Positions 11,406 through 59,118 of a stretch of 64,000 nucleotides of DNA are shown in pieces (the stretch's first letter is position 1; the number at the start of each line of letters is the position of its first letter). The stretch lies in the NCBI GenBank assembly GCA_015056655.1, contig SVFV01000003.1, positions 62,001 through 126,000 on the forward strand, given 5' to 3'. The notes beneath the pieces are model-generated. The model searched no databases and was not told where the DNA came from. It saw only the letters and a list, made by a program, of their open reading frames with translations. The position numbers and the translations under genes are program-made. The stretch comes from Butyrivibrio sp. (GTDB taxonomy: Bacteria > Bacillota > Clostridia > Lachnospirales > Lachnospiraceae).

Positions 11406-11592
11406 CAATTATGCTCTTATGTGGTTTTATTTTTTGTAAATCTAGCCAATACTCTTAGGTGGTTATTATTATTATAAATCTAACCAATACTCTTAGGTGG
11501 TTATTATTATTATAAATCTAACCAATACCCTTAGATGGTTTTAATTTTGATTTTTTCAAATTAATGTCCTTATGTGATTATAATGTTTTGCA
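11406..11592. repeat. 38-bp tandem repeat, about five units
   Basis: CAATACTCTTAGGTGGTT recurs at 11447 and 11485, with a close variant at 11523 (CAATACCCTTAGATGGTT), giving a period of exactly 38. Degenerate flanking units start at 11406 and about 11559. The unit also contains TTATTATTATTATAAATCTAAC. The array ends immediately before the lacI stop codon. Confidence 0.85.
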
Positions 11593-11596
11593 TAAT

Positions 11597-12616
11597 TCAG
11601 ACTAATTCTGCCAGATTTCTTACAGACTGCCTCTCTACTACCCGGATAGGAAGCCTCTCGTCAACTGCAAGATCTTTTTCTCCATCTATCATTCTAAAGA
11701 GATATTCAGAAGCCTTCTTAGCCTTTTCTTCATAATCCTGAGCGACAGATGTAATCTTCGGTGTCATAAATTCACAGTCAGGGAGGTTGTCAAAGCCTAT
11801 GATAGAAATATCGTTAGGGACACTTTTGCCACACTGCTTTAATCCCTCTACAACGCCAAATGCAACAACGTCTGACATGGTAGCAACCGCAGTAATCTCA
11901 TCTCCTGAAAAAGCTATATCCTGCCCTATCTCCATTGCATTTTTGTAGGTGGTATCAGATATAAAAATACGCTTCTTTGGAAGCTCTATATTACTCTCCT
12001 TACAAGCATCAGAAAAGCCTTTAAACCTCTCCTTTATAACGCCCTCTTCATCCACTTTAGGTGTCACAAGAGCTATATTCTTATGCCCTTTTCCAATAAG
12101 ATATTTTGCAGAAAGATATCCTCCGCGATAGTCCTCGATACCAACGTTAACTATCTTTTCACCTGGAGCATAGGTATCAATGAAAACCATCGGAACATCG
12201 ATCTGTTCCTTAATCTCTTTTGCCTCTTCCTCATAAATACCAAGAAAGAACGCTCCATCAACATTCCATGAGGACAGCAATGTGATAATATCTCTCGGAT
12301 CACCAACACCTCTTAGCATGAGGTAGTAATCATTGTTTCGAACGCACTTTTCCAATGCTGCGATAATATGCGCATTGTACGGATTAGTAAAAAAGTCCTC
12401 GTCCTTGCCAAGATACGGAACCGAAAGACCTATGATCTTACTCTCCTTCTTTGCTAATGACCTTGCCACAGCGTTAGGTTTGTAGTTATTTTCTTTAATG
12501 ATATTTTCTATTCTTTTCCTGGTCTCCTCTGAAACCTTGTGGTTATTCCCATTTAGAACATTAGAAACTGTAGCAGTACTAACTCCCGCCAGTTTTGCTA
12601 TCTCCTTAAGATTCAT
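11597..12616 (-). CDS. LacI-family transcriptional regulator of the permease/GH31 operon
   Basis: The 339-residue protein starts with a LacI helix-turn-helix and hinge (MNLKEIAKLAGVSTATVSNV, then YKPNAVARSLA), followed by a periplasmic-binding-like sensor domain ending with the GFDNLPDCEFMTPKITSV motif. A GGAGGAG site precedes the ATG. An operator of the same type (TTAACCGCTTAA) lies downstream of its own promoter and twice at the promoter at 10808-10856. It therefore most likely represses both itself and the transporter/GH31 operon until an alpha-glucoside-type inducer binds. The inducer is inferred from the neighbours. Confidence 0.92.
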   Translation of the reverse strand: MNLKEIAKLAGVSTATVSNVLNGNNHKVSEETRKRIENIIKENNYKPNAVARSLAKKESKIIGLSVPYLGKDEDFFTNPYNAHIIAALEKCVRNNDYYLMLRGVGDPRDIITLLSSWNVDGAFFLGIYEEEAKEIKEQIDVPMVFIDTYAPGEKIVNVGIEDYRGGYLSAKYLIGKGHKNIALVTPKVDEEGVIKERFKGFSDACKESNIELPKKRIFISDTTYKNAMEIGQDIAFSGDEITAVATMSDVVAFGVVEGLKQCGKSVPNDISIIGFDNLPDCEFMTPKITSVAQDYEEKAKKASEYLFRMIDGEKDLAVDERLPIRVVERQSVRNLAELV

Positions 12617-20345: not shown

Positions 20346-20365
20346 ACCCTTCTCCTTTTTTCATA

Positions 20366-20437
20366 AGGAAGTTCCGCTCTCGCTTCGCTCGCCAGAACAC
20401 GTTCGGACTAGGCTCGACAGAACCTCGCCAAGTCCTC
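20366..20437 (-). repeat. Intra-operonic two-hairpin element, copy 1 (after permease gene)
   Basis: Two stems follow the permease stop codon. The one next to the stop is GGACT-A-GGC with GCC-A-AGTCC (20405-20413/20427-20435). The outer one is GTTCCG with CAGAAC around CTCTCG...CTCG (20371-20376/20393-20398). Five further copies with compensating changes lie at 33049, 34857, 35880, 56618 and 58010. Confidence 0.85.
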
Positions 20438-33012: not shown

Positions 33013-33048
33013 TTTTCAAAAGCTAAAATTCTGCCCTCGCATTGAAAG

Positions 33049-33120
33049 AGGAAGTTCGACTCTCGCTTTGCTCGATCGAACTAAGTAGTACGCTAAGCTC
33101 GAAAATACCTCGCTAAGCGA
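33049..33120 (-). repeat. Intra-operonic two-hairpin element, copy 2 (after binding-protein gene)
   Basis: It abuts the binding-protein stop codon. Stem next to the stop: CGCT-A-AGC with GCT-A-AGCG (33091-33098/33112-33119). Outer stem: GTTCGA with TCGAAC (33054-33059/33076-33081) around CTCTCGCTTTGCTCGA. Both stems keep pairing with bases that differ from copies 1 and 3. Confidence 0.88.
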
Positions 33121-34791
33121 TTACTTATACAGAGCATCCATCTGAGACTGAAGTGCTGCTGCAACATCAGCGATACCAGCCTGCTCAAGAGAAGCCTGCA
33201 TCTCAGCTACGATTTCCTCAGCTGTGCCTGTGTACTTACCAAAGGAGATCTGCTTCATGTAGTTTGTATAAACTTCGTTACAGTTGTCGATCTTAGCCTG
33301 GATAGCATCTACATCAGGAACAAACTGTCCATAAGGATAGTCGATCTTAACCTTGTCATACTTAGCATAGAGCTCGTCAATCTTATCCCAGTTACGTGTA
33401 GCATCTCTGATCTCGAGGTCGTCGTTACGTCCCCACCAGTAGTTTGTCATACCGTTGATGTTGTCTGTGCTTGAATCAAATCCATCAGGAGTTGTTCTAA
33501 GACCTTCATCATTGATAGCGTAGGAAACGCCCTCGATACCATAGTTGAAGAGCTTGTAGCAGTCAGGATCGTTTCTGATAAGGTCATATACCATAAGTGC
33601 TCTCTCGGGGTTCTGAGATGCAGCTGAAACTGCCATAGCACCATGTGTGATTGAAAGAGCTACAACGTTGTCTGTCTCTTCACCAAAGTAGAAGAAGCCT
33701 GACTCTGCGTTCGGATCATCAGCATAGATTGTGTTTGCTTCGTTAGCTGAGCAAAGATCTGTCCATGTCTGTGTGTGGTGCTGCTCTGCTGCAACCTGAC
33801 CTACACGATACTCATCTCTGTTCTGTGAAGATGTGTTGTTGAGAACGTCTGTAGGCCATACACCAATCTCATCCCACTCCTTCATCATCTTTGCATATTC
33901 AACAAGTGAATCTGTCTCTGTCATAACAGGAGTAACAACTGTGTAAAGGTCATCCTTTGTGCCGCCCCAAAGAGCGCCAGTTGCAAGACCATCAATTGCT
34001 ACGAAGTTTGTGTGTGAAGAAATCCAGCCGTTAGCCATCTGTGCATACTGTGTTCCGTCTGAATCCCAAACTGCCTTAAGTTCCGGATGATTTTCCTTTA
34101 CAAATGCAAAGTATGTTGTGAGGTCTTCCCAGCTGTGTACGCCGTCTGCAAGACCAGCATCCTTTGCCCAGTCAAGACGATAGATAAATCCGTGGTTTGT
34201 CCACTGTGCGTAGTTATCTTCAGGCATCAGATAGATGTCGCCATCATATTTACACATTTCCCAGTGATCTGCAGGTACGCTAGCCCATGTCTGAGGAGCG
34301 TAGGTCTGGAGCATCTCCTCTGAAAGAGGAAGGAAAGCACCATTCTTTGTATTCGGCCAAGCATCAAGCCAGTCAGATGCTGTACCAACAAGGTCTACAG
34401 AACCATCCATCTGTGCAAGTGTCAGATTGTAGTTTGCAAGATAGTCAGTCCACTCGATGTAATAAATCTCAAGCTCAGCATTAACCTTCTCTGTAAGGAT
34501 CTTATTGAGCTCTGTAAGCATCTCATCAAGACGCTCAGCAGCTTTTCCATCAGGTCTGTCACCTGTTGTCATGTAGTTGATGACTACATGCTCTGATGTG
34601 TCGATGTCTGATGCAGGAGCTGTTTCAGTTGCTGCATCGCTTTCTGAAGACTCAGCAGTCTCCCCGGACTCCTCAGTCTTTGTCTCTGTCTTGTCTGCTG
34701 TTGTACTTCCACCATTTGAAGCACCGCCACATGCAGCAAGTGAGAATGCCATTGTGGCACTCAGTAAAACCGACAATACCTTTTTCTTCAT
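33121..34791 (-). CDS. Sugar-binding lipoprotein, LplA/LipO type
   Basis: The 556-residue protein has a lipoprotein signal peptide (MKKKVLSVLLSATMAFSLAA, lipobox LAAC) and a Ser/Glu/Thr-rich tether. The large binding domain has the pattern of LplA/LipO-type proteins (VINYMTTGDRPDGKAAERL, MPEDNYAQWTNHGFIYRLDW, LMVYDLIRNDPDCYKLFNYG). It belongs with the LplB/LplC-like permeases upstream. GH35, GH2 and GH27 neighbours suggest beta- and alpha-galactosides. AGGAGGG precedes the ATG. Confidence 0.94.
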   Translation of the reverse strand: MKKKVLSVLLSATMAFSLAACGGASNGGSTTADKTETKTEESGETAESSESDAATETAPASDIDTSEHVVINYMTTGDRPDGKAAERLDEMLTELNKILTEKVNAELEIYYIEWTDYLANYNLTLAQMDGSVDLVGTASDWLDAWPNTKNGAFLPLSEEMLQTYAPQTWASVPADHWEMCKYDGDIYLMPEDNYAQWTNHGFIYRLDWAKDAGLADGVHSWEDLTTYFAFVKENHPELKAVWDSDGTQYAQMANGWISSHTNFVAIDGLATGALWGGTKDDLYTVVTPVMTETDSLVEYAKMMKEWDEIGVWPTDVLNNTSSQNRDEYRVGQVAAEQHHTQTWTDLCSANEANTIYADDPNAESGFFYFGEETDNVVALSITHGAMAVSAASQNPERALMVYDLIRNDPDCYKLFNYGIEGVSYAINDEGLRTTPDGFDSSTDNINGMTNYWWGRNDDLEIRDATRNWDKIDELYAKYDKVKIDYPYGQFVPDVDAIQAKIDNCNEVYTNYMKQISFGKYTGTAEEIVAEMQASLEQAGIADVAAALQSQMDALYK

Positions 34792-34856
34792 TTAATAACC
34801 CTCCTATGAAAGAAATGAATGTTATATCTAAACTCGCCTCCCGAGTTGAGATCACA

Positions 34857-34928
34857 AGGAAGTTCCGCTCTCGCTTCGCTCGCCGGAACACGTTCGCACT
34901 AGGCTCTAAAATACATCGCCAAGTGCTC
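34857..34928 (-). repeat. Intra-operonic two-hairpin element, copy 3 (after permease gene)
   Basis: Stem next to the permease stop: GCACT-A-GGC with GCC-A-AGTGC (34896-34904/34918-34926). Outer stem: GTTCCG with CGGAAC (34862-34867/34884-34889). Relative to copy 1, a G-C pair in the first stem has become C-G on both sides, and the outer stem is now perfect. Confidence 0.88.
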
Positions 34929-35855
34929 TCAGCCTTTTACCGCTCCAACAGTAATACCACCGATGAAGTACTTCTGAACAAAAGGATAAAGAAGTACGAT
35001 GGGGCCTGTTGCAAGCATTGCGTTTGCCATCTTTACAGTCTCTGTAGGAATATCTGTAAGTGATACGTACTGTCCTGCTACAGAGTTTTTAAGAGCCTGT
35101 GTCTTGTTTACGATTTCGTAAAGCATGTACTGCAGAGGCTTTACATCAACCTTACTTGAAAGGAAAAGTGATGACTGATACCACTCATTCCAGTAACCAA
35201 GTGCAAGGAAAAGACCAATTGTTGCAAGAGCAGGCTTAAGCATTGGAAGAACCAGTCTTACGAAGATAACCATATCTCCTGCTCCGTCAATTTTTCCTGA
35301 TTCAGTGATCTCATGAGGAATCTGCTTAACGAAGTTCTTCATAAGGATTATGAGCCAGGGTGACATCATCAAAGGAAGAAGCACTGCAAAGTAGCTATCC
35401 TTGAGATGATAGGTCTGAGTCATCAGCAGGTAGTAAGGTGCAAGTCCTGCTGAGAAAAGACTTGTAAAGTAAATATAGAAGGAAATTGCATTTCTGAAAG
35501 GGAAATCCTTTCTCTGAAGTGCGTATCCTGTCATTGCTATTATTGAAAGTCCTACACCTGTTCCAACCAATGTCATGATGATGGTTAAAAGGTATGCCTT
35601 CCAGATCAGTCCACTCTTTGTAACCATCTCATAAGCCATCAATGTGAATTCATGAGGAATGATCTGAACTCCATGAATTCTTATGTAATTTTCTGATGTA
35701 AAGCTTGATGCAAGTATTATCAAAAACGGAAAGATACAAGCCAGTGCATAAAAGGTTGTAAGAAAATATCCTACGCCTCGAACGACCATGTCGGTTGCTC
35801 CAATTTTTACCTTGGCTCCACTATCCATTAAGTCTAAATCTTTTGTCTTAGCCAT
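34929..35855 (-). CDS. ABC transporter permease, LplC type
   Basis: The ATG of MAKTKDLDLMDSG is favoured by an AGAGG site 8 bases upstream; a longer frame to 35930 runs into the repeat element. The 308-residue membrane protein has about six segments and the EAA loop HEITESGKIDGAGDMVIFVR, ending GGITVGAVKG. It pairs with the LplB-type permease directly upstream. No dedicated ATPase is present in the cluster. Confidence 0.92.
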   Translation of the reverse strand: MAKTKDLDLMDSGAKVKIGATDMVVRGVGYFLTTFYALACIFPFLIILASSFTSENYIRIHGVQIIPHEFTLMAYEMVTKSGLIWKAYLLTIIMTLVGTGVGLSIIAMTGYALQRKDFPFRNAISFYIYFTSLFSAGLAPYYLLMTQTYHLKDSYFAVLLPLMMSPWLIILMKNFVKQIPHEITESGKIDGAGDMVIFVRLVLPMLKPALATIGLFLALGYWNEWYQSSLFLSSKVDVKPLQYMLYEIVNKTQALKNSVAGQYVSLTDIPTETVKMANAMLATGPIVLLYPFVQKYFIGGITVGAVKG

Positions 35856-35879
35856 ATTATTGCCTCTTCTCATTTTTAT

Positions 35880-35956
35880 AATGAAGTTCTGCTCTCGTGC
35901 TACGCACTCGCCAGAACAAAGTTCGCTCACGAAAATCGAAGATTTTCTAGCTCACT
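35880..35956 (-). repeat. Intra-operonic two-hairpin element, copy 4 (between the two permease genes)
   Basis: Outer stem GTTCTG with CAGAAC (35886-35891/35912-35917) enclosing CTCTC, an inner stem GTGC/GCAC and CTCGC. The stop-proximal half differs: it is a GAAAATC/GATTTTC stem (35931-35947). The changed outer pairs (TG/CA instead of CG/CG or GA/TC) remain complementary. Confidence 0.8.
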
Positions 35957-36910: not shown

Positions 36911-36965
36911 TAAATCCACTTCCCTTTTGTTATTTAGTAGTATCTTTCTTGTCATTTTAATCAAT

Positions 36966-37042
36966 TTGCAACCGGTTTCATATAAATATTCAAACATATT
37001 GCTTGCATATCGTCAACAAAAAATTTGAAACCGGATTCAAAT
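36966..37042 (-). promoter_or_regulatory. Galactoside operon promoter with two LacI-type operators
   Basis: TTGCAACCGGTTTCAT (36966-36981) and TTTGAAACCGGATTCAAAT (37024-37042) share the GAAACCGG core with the site upstream of lacI (38266-38282). A -35-like TTGACG (37016-37011 on the minus strand) lies between them; the -10 is weak. The two centres are about 60 bp apart, which would permit repression by DNA looping. Confidence 0.75.
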
Positions 37043-37056
37043 TTGTGTATTTTAAA

Positions 37057-37195: not shown

Positions 37196-38239
37196 TTAGG
37201 CTCTACTAGGTCCACTGCTCTCGCGTTTTACCAAAGTGGGCTTTATTGCCTGTCTTGCAGGCACCTTTTCGCCCTTTGAAACCGCTATTGCCGTATCAAT
37301 AAGACACTGACCAAAGCTTTCATAGTTATAATCCACACTTGTAAGCTTAGGGATAGTTACCTCTGAAATATAGGTATTATCAAAGCTTGCAACGGAGAAA
37401 TCCTGAGGAATTCTGTATCCGCTGTCCTCAATAGCCCTGACAACACCAGCAGCAGCAAAGTCGTTTATAGCAATGATAGCTGTAGGGAGCTTAGGCATCT
37501 GCATGATTTTCTGCATGCACTCATAACCGCTTTCAATGGAATAGCTTCCGTCAACAATGTAGCCTGGATTCACCTCTATTCCATGCTTTTTAAGAATCTC
37601 TTTATACAACTGCTTTTTCTCAAAGGATGATCTTACATCCTCTCTTCCCCCAACGATTGCTATCCTGGTATGTCCGAGAGAAAGCAGATGTTCCATCACA
37701 ATGTCAATTCCGCTTGCAGCATCGATCTCAACACTATGACTATCTATGCCATCGTCGAGTCTGCCTGTAACTACAATAGGTGTAGTCTTAGCGATCTTCT
37801 TGACCACTTCTCCATATCGCTTGTCAGTCTGCACATCATCAACACGTCCACCTATCTGAACAATGGCATCAACCTTCTGCTGTCTCAGTATTTCAAGCTG
37901 TTCCATCTCATTTTCAGTTATACCAAAGGAATTGTATAAAGACACAGTATAACCAGCCTTCTGAGCTGCGGATTCACAGGCCACAAAAAGCTGAGCATAG
38001 AAAGGATTTCGGACATCAGCCACGATAATCCCTATGGATTTTGTTGAAGTTTCTGATAATCCCTTTGCGAGCGCATTGGGTTTAAAGTTGTACTTCTCAA
38101 TGATCTGAAGCACACGTTCTCTCTTCTCAGAGCGAACATTCGCGCTATTAGTCATAACACGGGAAACAGTCGCTGGTGAAACGCCTGCCTCCCGAGCAAT
38201 ATCATAAATTGTAATGGTTTTAGATTCTACGCTACCCAT
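37196..38239 (-). CDS. LacI-family regulator of the galactoside locus
   Basis: The 347-residue protein has a LacI helix-turn-helix (TITIYDIAREAGVSPATVSR, FKPNALAKGLSE) and a sensor domain (GIIVADVRNPFYAQL, SVASFDNTYISEVTIPKLTSV). A GAAACCGG palindrome lies at its own promoter and twice at the transport operon promoter, so it probably represses both. No clear ribosome site precedes the ATG; the bases there are instead half of a 12-bp inverted repeat. The inducer is presumably a galactoside. Confidence 0.93.
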   Translation of the reverse strand: MGSVESKTITIYDIAREAGVSPATVSRVMTNSANVRSEKRERVLQIIEKYNFKPNALAKGLSETSTKSIGIIVADVRNPFYAQLFVACESAAQKAGYTVSLYNSFGITENEMEQLEILRQQKVDAIVQIGGRVDDVQTDKRYGEVVKKIAKTTPIVVTGRLDDGIDSHSVEIDAASGIDIVMEHLLSLGHTRIAIVGGREDVRSSFEKKQLYKEILKKHGIEVNPGYIVDGSYSIESGYECMQKIMQMPKLPTAIIAINDFAAAGVVRAIEDSGYRIPQDFSVASFDNTYISEVTIPKLTSVDYNYESFGQCLIDTAIAVSKGEKVPARQAIKPTLVKRESSGPSRA

Positions 38240-38241
38240 GA

Positions 38242-38317
38242 TAAACTATCACACGCTTTCTTAGAATTTGAAACCGGTTGCATTTTTATAATATGTGATA
38301 GTTTACAGGACTGTCAA
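38242..38317 (-). promoter_or_regulatory. lacI promoter with operator and a separate 12-bp inverted repeat
   Basis: Minus-strand TTGACA (38317-38312, overlapping the GH2 stop), an 18-base spacer and TATTAT (38293-38288) form the promoter. ATTTGAAACCGGTTGCA (38266-38282) covers the start of transcription. In addition TAAACTATCACA (38242-38253) and TGTGATAGTTTA (38294-38305) are a perfect inverted repeat, one arm inside the promoter spacer and one next to the start codon. Confidence 0.75.
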
Positions 38318-56447: not shown

Positions 56448-56584
56448 GGCATTTCATCATTTGTGCCATTTCAGTGGACGCTTTCGCTCTATTTCAGACG
56501 CAAGGGTACTAAATCTGTAAAAAACACAGATTAAGTACCCGCGTCTTCAAAAGCCACTTCAATGGCATCAAACGCTTCAATGCC
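56448..56584 (-). other. 137-nt long imperfect hairpin between pgk and tpiA
   Basis: Nested pairings run from the outside in: GGCATT/AATGCC (56448-56453/56579-56584), TTTG/CAAA, TGCCATT/AATGGCA (56464-56470/56561-56567), AGTGG/CCACT, then AGACGC/GCGTCT (56496-56501/56541-56546) and a 15-bp arm GGGTACTAAATCTGT/ACAGATTAAGTACCC with one mismatch. It ends just upstream of the tpiA ribosome site. It could be an RNA element or a small palindromic mobile element; no terminal repeats typical of a known family were recognised. Confidence 0.75.
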
Positions 56585-56617
56585 TAATTTAGATATCAAA
56601 TACAAATTTATTATTCA

Positions 56618-56692
56618 CAAGGAAGTTCGACTCTCGCTCACGCTCGATCGAACTAAGTAGTACACCAGGCTCGAAAATACCTCGCCAGGTGA
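56618..56692 (-). repeat. Intra-operonic two-hairpin element, copy 5 (after pgk)
   Basis: Stop-proximal stem CACC-A-GGC with GCC-A-GGTG (56663-56670/56684-56691); outer stem GTTCGA with TCGAAC (56625-56630/56648-56653) around CTCTCGCTCACGCTCGA. The element touches the pgk stop codon, and the sequence GTGATTACTTA is shared with copy 6 across the stop. Confidence 0.88.
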
Positions 56693-57928
56693 TTACTTAT
56701 CGTCTGCTGCAACTACGCCAGGAAGTTCCTTGCCTTCAAGGAACTCGAGGGAAGCGCCACCACCTGTTGAGATGTGGCTCATCTTGTCAGCAAAGCCAAG
56801 CTGGTTAACAGCAGCTGCACTATCACCACCACCGATGATTGTTGTAGCATCTGTCTCAGCAAGAGCCTTAGCAACAGCCTTTGTACCTTCAGCAAGTACA
56901 GGGTTCTCGAATACACCCATAGGTCCGTTCCAAACAACTGTTTTTGCGCTCTTTACAGCATCTGCGAAAAGCTCTCTTGTCTTAACGCCGATATCAAGAC
57001 CTTCCTTGTCAGCAGGGATTGAGCTTGACTCAACGATAGCTGTCTCAATGTTAGGATTATCGATAGGATCCGGGAAACCACCAGATACAACTGTATCGAT
57101 AGGAAGAAGAAGCTTCTTGCCGTTCTTCTCAGCCTTCTCCATCATTTCCTTACAGTAGTCGATCTTCTCGTTATCAACAAGTGAAAGACCTACTTCATAT
57201 CCCTTAGCCTTAAGGAATGTGTAAGCCATACCACCACCGATGATAAGAGTATCGCACTTCTCAAGAAGAGTATTGATAACATTGAGCTTATCAGCAACCT
57301 TAGCACCACCAAGGATAGCTACGAAAGGTCTAACTGGATTCTCAACAGCGTTTCCAAGGAAGTCGATTTCCTTCTGCATAAGGTAACCAACTACATTGCT
57401 TCCACCCTTTTCTGTGATGTACTTTGTAACAACAGCTACAGAAGCGTGTGCTCTGTGAGCTGAACCAAAAGCGTCGCATACATAATCATCAGCAAGATCA
57501 GCAAGCTCTTTTGCAAAAGCCTCACCAGCCTCTTCAGGCTTAGTCTCTTCCTTGCCTCTGAAACGTGTATTCTGAAGAAGAACTACATCTCCCTCGTTCA
57601 TAGCTGCAACAGCAGCTGTAGCATCAGCACCAGTTACGTTGTAGTCAGCTACGAACTTAACCTCCTTGCCAAGCTTCTCTGAAAGTCTCTTTGCTACTGG
57701 AGCAAGTGACTCGCCCTCGTTAGGGCCATTCTTTACCTTACCAAGGTGTGAGCAAAGGATAACCTTTCCACCATCTTTGATAAGCTTATTGATTGTAGGA
57801 AGAGCTGCAACAATTCTAGTCTCGTCTGTGATCTCACCATTCTTAAGAGGTACATTGAAATCGCAGCGAACAAGAACACGACGGCCCTTTACGTTAATAT
57901 CATCTACTGATTTTTTGTTTAATGACAT
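56693..57928 (-). CDS. pgk: Phosphoglycerate kinase
   Basis: The start [20 protein letters not shown] has an AAGGAG site; a longer frame to 57967 lacks one and includes a hairpin. The 411-residue protein has [28 protein letters not shown], the GGAKVADK nucleotide region and the C-terminal [13 protein letters not shown] with [13 protein letters not shown]. It makes ATP from 1,3-bisphosphoglycerate. It lies between gap and tpiA, as in many Firmicutes. Confidence 0.98.
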
Positions 57929-57948
57929 AATTTTTCTCCTTATCTGTT

Positions 57949-57980
57949 TAAAAAAGGTCCGGCCCACTTGGACCGGACCT
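57949..57980 (-). terminator. Terminator-like hairpin between gap and pgk
   Basis: Stem AGGTCCGG with CCGGACCT (extended by further pairs) followed by a run of U on the minus strand. It lies about 20 bases before the pgk start, so it would let only part of the gap transcript continue. Confidence 0.8.
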
Positions 57981-58009
57981 CTTAAATAAGATCTCTTTAA
58001 GTTGGATTC

Positions 58010-58092
58010 ACAAGGTAGTTCTGCTCTCGTATCTTGCGATGCTCGACAGAACTAAGTTCGAATCATCGCTTCGAAAAAACCTCGCTAGGTGA
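58010..58092 (-). repeat. Intra-operonic two-hairpin element, copy 6 (after gap)
   Basis: Outer stem GTTCTG with CAGAAC (58018-58023/58047-58052), with an inner GTATC/GATGC stem in place of the short loop. The stop-proximal half is diverged (a palindromic TTCGAA and AATCA/TGATT arms) but keeps the CCTCGCTAGGTGATTAC end next to the gap stop codon. Confidence 0.82.
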
Positions 58093-59118
58093 TTACTTAA
58101 CGAACTTCTCGAAGTACTTAATTGTACGAACCATCTGTGATGTGTATGAGTTCTCGTTGTCATACCATGAAACAACCTGAACTTCGTAAAGGTCATCACC
58201 GATCTTTGTAACCATTGTCTGTGTAGCATCGAAGAGTGAACCATATGTCATTCCAACGATATCTGAAGATACGATCTCATCCTCGTTGTAACCGAATGTC
58301 TCAGGATCTGAAGCCTTCTTCATAGCTGCGTTGATAGAATCCTTTGTTACTTCTGTAGCTGACTTAACAACTGCGAAGAGAAGTGTTGTTGAACCTGTAG
58401 GTACAGGAACTCTCTGAGCAGCTCCGATGAGCTTGCCGTTAAGTTCTGGGATAACAAGACCGATAGCCTTTGCAGCACCTGTTGAGTTAGGAACGATGTT
58501 AACAGCGCCTGCACGTGCTCTTCTAAGGTCACCCTTTCTCTGTGGTCCGTCAAGGATCATCTGATCACCTGTGTAAGCATGGATTGTTGCCATGATACCA
58601 GACTGGATTGGAGCGTAGTCGTTAAGAGCCTTTGCCATAGGTGCAAGGCAGTTTGTTGTGCAAGATGCAGCTGAGATGATGTTGTCATCTGCTGTAAGTG
58701 TCTCGTGGTTAACGTTATATACGATAGTAGGAAGATCATTTCCTGCAGGAGCAGAAATAACAACCTTCTTAGCACCAGCGTTGATGTGTGCCTGAGCCTT
58801 ATCCTTAGATGTGTAGAAACCTGTGCACTCAAGAACAACGTCTACACCGATCTTGCCCCAAGGAAGGTTATTTGCATCAGCCTCCTTGTAGATCTCGATC
58901 TCTTTACCATTTACTGTGATTGAGTGATCGCTGTATGAAACCTTGTCAGCATACTTATACTTACCCTGAGAAGAATCATACTTAAGAAGGTGTGCAAGCA
59001 TCTTAGGATCTGTAAGATCGTTGATTGCTACGATCTCTGTTCCTTCGTGCTCGAACATCTGTCTGAATGCAAGACGACCGATACGGCCAAAACCATTAAT
59101 TGCTACCTTTACTGCCAT
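58093..59118 (-). CDS. gap: Glyceraldehyde-3-phosphate dehydrogenase
   Basis: The 341-residue protein has the NAD-binding start [18 protein letters not shown] and the catalytic Cys in [17 protein letters not shown]. It also has the substrate loop ([20 protein letters not shown]) and the C-terminal [16 protein letters not shown]. It makes 1,3-bisphosphoglycerate. It is the first gene of gap-pgk-tpiA. AGGAGG precedes the ATG. A 16-bp palindrome lies in its promoter region. Confidence 0.98.

What the first reader, a model, noticed from the sequence alone, without database searches (positions are those of the whole stretch)
33049..35956. Family of intra-operonic two-hairpin elements with covarying stems (transporter copies)
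Directly seen: copies at 20366-20437, 33049-33120, 34857-34928 and 35880-35956 each abut the stop codon of a transporter gene on the minus strand. The outer stem reads GTTC-NN...N'N'-GAAC with NN pairs CG/CG, GA/TC or TG/CA (copy 1 has one mismatch). The stop-proximal stem changes on both sides (GGACT/AGTCC, GCACT/AGTGC, CGCT/AGCG). Compensating changes point to selection on structure, probably in RNA. Known REP/BIME elements of enterobacteria behave similarly (3' protection, differential expression), but I do not recognise this family.
Basis: partly seen in the sequence, partly recalled or inferred. Interest (0 to 1): 0.75.

Follow-up and report, generated by a model that had tools for sequence, protein, structure and literature searches.

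The report
Stop-codon-anchored double hairpins in Lachnospiraceae
A family of small paired hairpins sits directly at the stop codons of highly codon-adapted genes in rumen and gut bacteria of one family; the paired bases change together, so the folded shape is kept, most likely in the messenger RNA.

Summary
The window holds six copies, all on the minus strand: four follow sugar ABC-transporter genes, two follow pgk and gap. A covariance model gives 30 matches at E<0.01 in the 4.0 Mb genome, fragments included, and matches in 69 of 79 genomes of the genus (evidently Butyrivibrio) and 115 of 396 of the family; all positives in order and phylum samples belong to that family. Pairing is almost purely Watson-Crick: 112 cells changed on both sides, 3 on one, in 35 genus copies. 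Both hairpins carry a tandem G-A/G-A step flanked by covarying pairs. The 5' stem reaches into the gene end. A sense gene stop ends within 10 nt upstream in 19 of 24 own-genome copies, antisense in none. Host genes have high codon adaptation. At the gap stop the element came or went at least five times among 30 genomes. No Rfam match; no consistent RAYT partner. Best reading: a REP-like, non-autonomous repeat acting in mRNA as a 3'-end structure of the upstream cistron. The mechanism is inferred.

The parts
20361..20435 (-). Copy 1 (class A, after an ABC permease, before a GH3 gene): hairpin 1 20405-20435, linker 20399-20404, hairpin 2 20371-20398, tail 20361-20370; stop codon TGA ends two bases upstream
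33044..33120 (-). Copy 2 (class B, after the DUF3502 gene): hairpin 1 33090-33120, linker 33082-33089, hairpin 2 33054-33081, tail 33044-33053; stop TAA directly upstream and inside the outer stem
34852..34926 (-). Copy 3 (class A, after an ABC permease): hairpin 1 34896-34926, linker 34890-34895, hairpin 2 34862-34889, tail 34852-34861; stop TGA ends two bases upstream
35876..35956 (-). Copy 4 (after an ABC permease): divergent hairpin 1 35918-35956 (outer stem AAAGT/ACTTT, then GA/GA, then GCT/AGC, by eye), hairpin 2 35886-35917, tail 35876-35885; stop TAA directly upstream
   Evidence: weaker model match 35876-35938 (E 5.8e-5)
56615..56692 (-). Copy 5 (class B, between pgk and tpi): hairpin 1 56662-56692, linker 56654-56661, hairpin 2 56625-56653, tail 56615-56624; stop TAA directly upstream
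58008..58092 (-). Copy 6 (after gap, before a terminator-like hairpin and pgk): hairpin 1 plus linker 58053-58092 (partly decayed), hairpin 2 58018-58052, tail 58008-58017; stop TAA directly upstream

Best explanation
This is a non-autonomous, REP-like repeat family of Lachnospiraceae whose working form is a double hairpin in the mRNA, flush with the stop codon of a strongly expressed gene. Hairpin 1 carries one or more tandem G.A steps, and its base takes in the last codon(s) and stop codon. Hairpin 2 is usually a GTTC...GAAC stem with a second tandem G.A step, often with a GNA/GNRA-like loop. A TTCCTT-like tail follows in most copies. Most likely it caps the upstream cistron: once a terminating ribosome has left, the structure closes and blocks 3'-to-5' decay coming from the distal part of the operon or from the terminator, raising or fixing the share of the upstream gene product. 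Copies spread by copying or conversion between sites, turn over quickly, and are kept where they serve a strongly expressed gene. Shown here by computation: structure with covariation, stop-codon anchoring, sense orientation, bias to high codon adaptation, gain or loss between species. Inferred: that codon adaptation means expression, action in RNA rather than DNA, the exonuclease-barrier role, and the mode of spread.
For: Covariation: 14 of 18 pairs change on both sides in 24 own-genome copies, and 15 of 18 in 35 genus copies with 112 two-sided, 3 one-sided and 7 unpaired cells of 630; the copies' own tree needs at least 56 changes of pair type, some of them to non-standard pairs. By sequence, only the sense strand can form the G.A steps, and copies are sense to the gene: a sense stop ends within 10 nt upstream in 19 of 24 own-genome, 29 of 35 genus, 13 of 35 distant and 33 of 83 pattern copies, against 0, 1, 3 and 1 for the antisense equivalent (frames of 80 or more codons). 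The outer stem that includes the gene end pairs better within its own copy than in any of 200 shuffles, for 19 distinct own-genome pairs and 62 distinct pairs of the pattern set. The 23 host genes have median codon adaptation 0.79 against 0.63 for 132 other genes, p 1.7e-8. Hosts include gap, pgk, HPr, two thiolases, hbd, dnaK. Several copies lie upstream of separate terminator-like hairpins (by eye), so the element itself need not terminate transcription.
Against: There are no expression, 3'-end or half-life data. G.U pairs are rarer (8 of 1,044 cells) than in terminator folds from the gap loci (18 of 466), which is unusual for selection on RNA alone and fits DNA hairpins or template-switch repair, though copies were found by good pairing. 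Presence at one site is patchy: 15 of 30 genomes at gap. Many copies outside the genus sample are not at a stop: 22 of 35 distant and 50 of 83 pattern copies. In the genus set, mostly class A, the outer-stem test is weaker (9 of 200 shuffles as low). The eight permease hosts alone are only slightly above background in codon adaptation (median 0.70, p 0.045). Ribosomal-protein genes have no listed copy on their contig, so strong expression is not sufficient.
Confidence: 0.45

Rival explanations
1. A selfish DNA repeat. The hairpins act as single-stranded DNA in an insertion or copying process that is steered to stop codons of highly transcribed genes, where the non-template strand is exposed. 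It has no useful function in RNA.
For: Nearly pure Watson-Crick pairing; at least 5-7 gains or losses at one stop codon among 30 genomes; tandem and nested copies; built-in stop codons at the 5' end independent of the gene; a GTAG like that of RAYT-REPs at the sense 5' foot in 14 of 83 pattern copies and, on the other strand, beside hairpin 1 in 13 of 59 genus copies.
Against: No consistent partner enzyme: 0 of 11 fetched loci with the longer RAYT-like Y1 proteins holds a copy; 2 of 20 IS200-type loci do, one copy about 0.7 kb and one about 0.2 kb from the Y1 gene. Genomes with no Y1 match carry 32, 57 and 28 element matches (G028, G049, G069; G049 is 84% complete). One copy searched against plasmids and one against phages gave no match. 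Does not by itself explain the kept G.A steps.
Confidence: 0.3
2. A brake on the terminating ribosome. As reported for E. coli REPs lying within 15 nt of a stop codon, the hairpin stalls the last ribosomes and lowers or tunes output of the upstream gene.
For: In most genus copies the stop ends within 10 nt, and the gene end pairs into the stem; the E. coli effect is cited in PMC12306157 (passages seen).
Against: Host genes are better codon-adapted than other genes, an odd place for a general brake; no ribosome data.
Confidence: 0.15
3. A weak intrinsic terminator or attenuator between cistrons.
For: A GC-rich hairpin followed by a T-rich TTCCTT tail; many copies lie before a same-strand frame.
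Against: No true T run. Separate terminator-like hairpins follow the copies behind gap and behind copy 2 (by eye; folds).
Confidence: 0.07
4. Chance likeness, or shared descent of the permease genes alone.
For: Many hosts are related permeases ending in GAVKG.
Against: Unrelated hosts, E-values down to 9e-23 genome-wide (ten copies built the model), zero matches for the reversed pattern.
Confidence: 0.01

Closest known systems
REP / BIME elements (GTAG- and CGTC-tagged REPs, REPINs)
   Same: Short imperfect palindromes, many extragenic copies, often within 20 bp of gene 3' ends; GTAG REPs can supply the TAG stop codon (PMC3733652, one section seen).
   Different: No consistent RAYT neighbour; no GTAG at the sense 5' foot in 59 genus copies, no CGTC found; two different hairpins in fixed order; sense orientation to the gene; tandem G.A steps; about 30 matches in this genome.
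E. coli REPs within 15 nt of a stop codon that stall ribosomes (reference 17 of PMC12306157; citing passages seen, the cited paper itself not seen)
   Same: A hairpin directly behind the stop codon.
   Different: Here the gene end and stop codon pair into the stem and host genes are highly codon-adapted; no stalling has been measured.
malE-malF type intercistronic REP (recalled, not looked up)
   Same: Structure between cistrons of sugar ABC-transporter operons, thought to protect upstream mRNA.
   Different: Different sequence and architecture as recalled; effect not measured here.

Membership tests
REP family with RAYT | A RAYT (Y1) transposase gene flanked by copies of the element | tested here: not met
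   0 of 11 fetched RAYT-like loci holds a copy, 2 of 20 IS200-type loci do; genomes with no Y1 match carry many copies. 'RAYT-like' rests on length and recalled motif, and only loci from the capped list were tested
REP family with RAYT | GTAG or CGTC tag at the foot of the palindrome | tested here: inconclusive
   GTAG at the sense 5' foot of hairpin 1: 0 of 24 and 0 of 35 genus copies, 14 of 83 pattern copies; read on the other strand, 9 of 24, 4 of 35 and 0 of 83; CGTC 0 in all three sets. A minority feature, not a family mark
REP-like repeats in the broad sense | Short palindromic, multi-copy, extragenic, near gene 3' ends | tested here: met
BIME | Units in alternating orientation | tested here: not met
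   Neighbouring copies in the own genome lie in the same orientation (C18 43663-43816, C42 32833-33070 and 39544-39697)
Any Rfam 15 family | Match above the gathering score | tested here: not met
   0 matches in the whole window; on 56550-58150 at E up to 5, four sub-threshold matches, none covering a copy (one overlaps 3 bases of the tail of copy 6)
Intrinsic terminator | GC hairpin followed by a T run | tested here: not met
   Tail is TTCCTT-like in most copies (by eye)
mRNA-stabilising 3' element | Longer half-life of the upstream mRNA segment | not testable with these tools
   Needs RNA measurements

The most novel reading that the evidence does not exclude
A mobile or copying RNA element of a whole bacterial family that is aimed at stop codons in sense orientation: it brings its own stop codon, folds the end of the host gene into its stem through tandem G.A modules, and acts as a portable 3' cap for strongly expressed metabolic genes, recognised by a still unknown Lachnospiraceae protein.
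Probability: 0.2. Interest if true: 0.85.

Novelty: new variant of a known kind. Interest (0 to 1): 0.62.

Why it matters
Lachnospiraceae are major fibre degraders and butyrate makers of gut and rumen (general knowledge). If true, a portable RNA structure tunes the ends of their glycolytic, butyrate and sugar-uptake genes, and its rapid gain and loss between species offers natural with/without pairs for testing. It would extend the REP idea to a family without a consistent RAYT partner, with a fixed orientation and a defined structural motif, and would give a handle on mRNA decay in these anaerobes.

Tried and rejected
Y1/RAYT transposase as the mobiliser: tested by presence and by flanks; no consistent link. 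Plasmid or phage origin: the pgk copy against plasmids and the 34.9 kb copy against phages, no match; the viral contig collection was not scanned. Stop-codon read-through stimulator: rejected by reading the frames, since the distance from stop to hairpin differs between copies (-1, -3, -6, -7, -8) and the class A frame behind TGA closes after nine codons in copy 1. Kink-turn: considered from the G.A steps; the unpaired bases lie as 1 x 2 rather than as a three-base bulge, and some copies have none, so not claimed. Anti-Shine-Dalgarno action of the TTCCTT tail: noticed, not tested.

Literature: seven searches listed nothing that describes this family; the sequence-string search found 11 papers, and the 10 listed hold only 11-12-base strings, none of the longer motifs. 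No bioRxiv preprints and few subscription papers are in that library, so absence from print is not shown.

Limits of counts: match numbers per genome are lower bounds, because only 150, 61, 12 or 16 candidates per genome were scored, with a model trained on this genus; distant relatives can be missed. Alignments made by the model lean towards its structure. Left out: duplicates from overlapping loci; matches with E above 1e-9 from set A5; L015 (gene 87 nt away), L031 (no gene found) and the second tandem copy behind L025. In one search my ungapped comparison did not match the pgk end in 5 of 20 genomes. The reference region contains a few spurious frames.
Full report
OBSERVATION. The four reported copies and two more are in the window, all on the minus strand. 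Pfam identifies the genes they follow as three ABC permeases, a DUF3502 protein, PGK and GAPDH. Read on the gene's strand, a copy is: stop codon, hairpin 1, a linker of 6-8 bases, hairpin 2, and a tail close to TTCCTTGTGA. A typical hairpin 1 is ACACT-T-GGC-GA-G-GTATTTT-C-GA-GCC-T-AGTGT. A typical hairpin 2 is GTTCTG-G-C-GA-GC-GAA-GC-GA-G-AG-CAGAAC. The GA/GA steps stay while pairs beside them covary (G-C, A-U, U-A next to the hairpin 1 step; G-C, A-U next to the hairpin 2 step), which argues for two tandem G.A pairs rather than open loops. In copies 4 and 6 hairpin 1 is divergent or partly decayed.

STRENGTH OF THE STRUCTURE. Ten hand-aligned copies give 98.9% paired cells and 11 of 18 pairs changed on both sides; 0 of 500 shuffles reach this, and sliding the partners by 1-3 columns drops pairing to 14-37%. 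The 24 best own-genome copies give 97.7% and 14 of 18; 35 copies in 31 loci of other genus members give 98.9% and 15 of 18, with 112 two-sided against 3 one-sided cells. The last two alignments were fitted to the model and lean towards it. The number of further pair types does not exceed the shuffles (180 and 288 of 500 as high). On a tree of the 35 copies the pair types need at least 56 changes, counted on a tree from the same columns. G.U is rare: 8 of 1,044 cells in the two larger sets, against 18 of 466 pairs in 35 terminator folds from the gap loci, some of which are the two strands of one terminator.

DISTRIBUTION. Model R1 gives 31 matches in the own genome at E<=1, of which 30 are below 0.01; some are fragments, and 150 of 1,620 candidates were scored. 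Model R2 gives matches in 69 of 79 genomes of the genus at E<=0.001 and in 115 of 396 family genomes, 91 of 280 genera, at E<=0.0001, the own genome included. An order sample gives 38 of 294 and a phylum sample 3 of 299; all these positives are in the window's family. A pattern scan of named genomes gives 107 stretches; titles of the 80 listed include Butyrivibrio hungatei, B. proteoclasticus, Mediterraneibacter, Dorea, Schaedlerella, Sporofaciens, Lachnoclostridium and many unnamed Lachnospiraceae. In at least ten of 27 loci of other genera hairpin 2 holds a second G.A module inside its outer stem (by eye).

STOP-CODON ANCHORING AND ORIENTATION. With frames of 80 or more codons, a sense stop ends within 10 nt before hairpin 1 in 19 of 24 own-genome copies, 29 of 35 genus copies, 13 of 35 distant copies and 33 of 83 pattern copies; the antisense counterpart is 0, 1, 3 and 1. 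The distances cluster at a few values (-1, -2, -3, -6 to -8, -10) because the element carries stop-bearing 5' sequence: GGCTGAGA or GCTGTGA (class A), AAGTAA (class B), TAGA or TTGA in other genera. These letters stay the same when the gene's own stop lies a few bases earlier, so I take them to belong to the element.

OUTER STEM. The bases before hairpin 1 pair with the linker behind it, often through a further GA/GA step (for example AGTCT-A-GA...GA-AGACT, or AAGGTA...TACCTT against AAAGTA...TACTTT). Own pairs are better than all 200 shuffles for 62 distinct pairs of the pattern set and 19 of the own genome; in the genus set (24 distinct, 20 of them class A) 9 of 200 shuffles are as low. In many copies the gene's last codon and stop codon are thus part of the stem.

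HOST GENES. Pfam was run on 24 distinct own-genome genes upstream of copies; one, the GHKL kinase of L015, lies 87 nt away, and two lie 18 and 24 nt away. They include sugar ABC permeases and binding proteins, gap, pgk, HPr, two thiolases, hbd, dnaK, transaldolase, a class II aldolase, MetRS, an M18 peptidase and a Complex1_30kDa protein. Codon adaptation against the ribosomal-protein region has median 0.79 in 23 host genes and 0.63 in 132 other genes (p 1.7e-8); without the eight permeases 0.82 (p 3e-9), the permeases alone 0.70 (p 0.045). The ribosomal-protein contig has no listed copy, so high expression is not sufficient.

TURNOVER. In 30 genomes with GAPDH at least 95% identical, 15 have a model match behind gap, 13 of them starting at the base after the stop codon and two 18 nt later behind a remnant; a few more carry decayed pieces by eye. 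On a gap tree this needs 7 changes, at least 5 forced by well-supported branches. At pgk, in 15 genomes whose end was matched, 8 carry a copy and 7 do not (by eye; 5 further genomes were not matched). Gap and pgk differ in which genomes carry a copy. The same stop thus gains or loses the element repeatedly, in the same orientation and nearly always at the same base.

WHAT IT IS. By broad definition this is REP-like. Of the marks of the RAYT-REP family, the flanking transposase was not met: 0 of 11 fetched loci with longer RAYT-like Y1 proteins holds a copy, 2 of 20 IS200-type loci do, and genomes with no Y1 match carry 28-57 matches. The GTAG tag is a minority feature: none at the sense foot in 59 genus copies, 14 of 83 pattern copies, and 13 of 59 genus copies when read on the other strand; CGTC was not seen. 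Published REPs also lie near gene 3' ends and GTAG REPs can supply a TAG stop (PMC3733652, one section seen), so the stop-codon link alone is not new. The strong sense orientation, G.A modules, outer stem over the stop codon and codon-adaptation bias are what sets this family apart. No Rfam match; no description among the listings of seven literature searches.

HOW IT MOST LIKELY WORKS. Only the sense strand can form the G.A steps, and that strand is the mRNA strand of the abutting gene in nearly every gene-anchored genus copy. I therefore favour action in the mRNA as a structure closing behind the last ribosome that protects or sets the level of the upstream cistron. A ribosome brake as cited for E. 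coli REPs within 15 nt of a stop (PMC12306157, passages seen) is the nearest functional rival. A purely selfish DNA repeat aimed at stop codons of transcribed genes remains possible, and the scarcity of G.U pairs is the best evidence for it.

Noticed in passing
window 36963-36985, 37022-37044, 38265-38287: Three copies of a near-palindrome close to TTTGAAACCGGNTNCA, at the start of the permease operon (the first overlaps the first codons of the mechanical ORF) and upstream of a LacI-family regulator gene (37196-38239): probable operators of that regulator.
   Followed up: partly
window 11411-11524: Three tandem 38-bp units (ATACTCTTAGGTGGTT...CTAACCA) just downstream of another LacI-family regulator gene (11597-12616, minus strand); function unknown.
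   Followed up: no
L015 1501-1575, L062 1501-1575, L064 1501-1575: Copies with nearly the same upstream flank in three genomes (own, G026, G015), not at an obvious gene stop; may mark an unannotated short gene or RNA.
   Followed up: no
L117 and L121 behind gap: A truncated class B start (TAATCACCTAGCG) followed by a second element, as if one copy had landed in another.
   Followed up: no
L038 1501-1559: Hairpin 2 apparently alone, directly behind a gene stop, without a recognisable hairpin 1.
   Followed up: no
G001, G002, G030, G044, G053: Near-complete genomes of the genus without a match at E<=0.001: possible element-free comparison strains.
   Followed up: no
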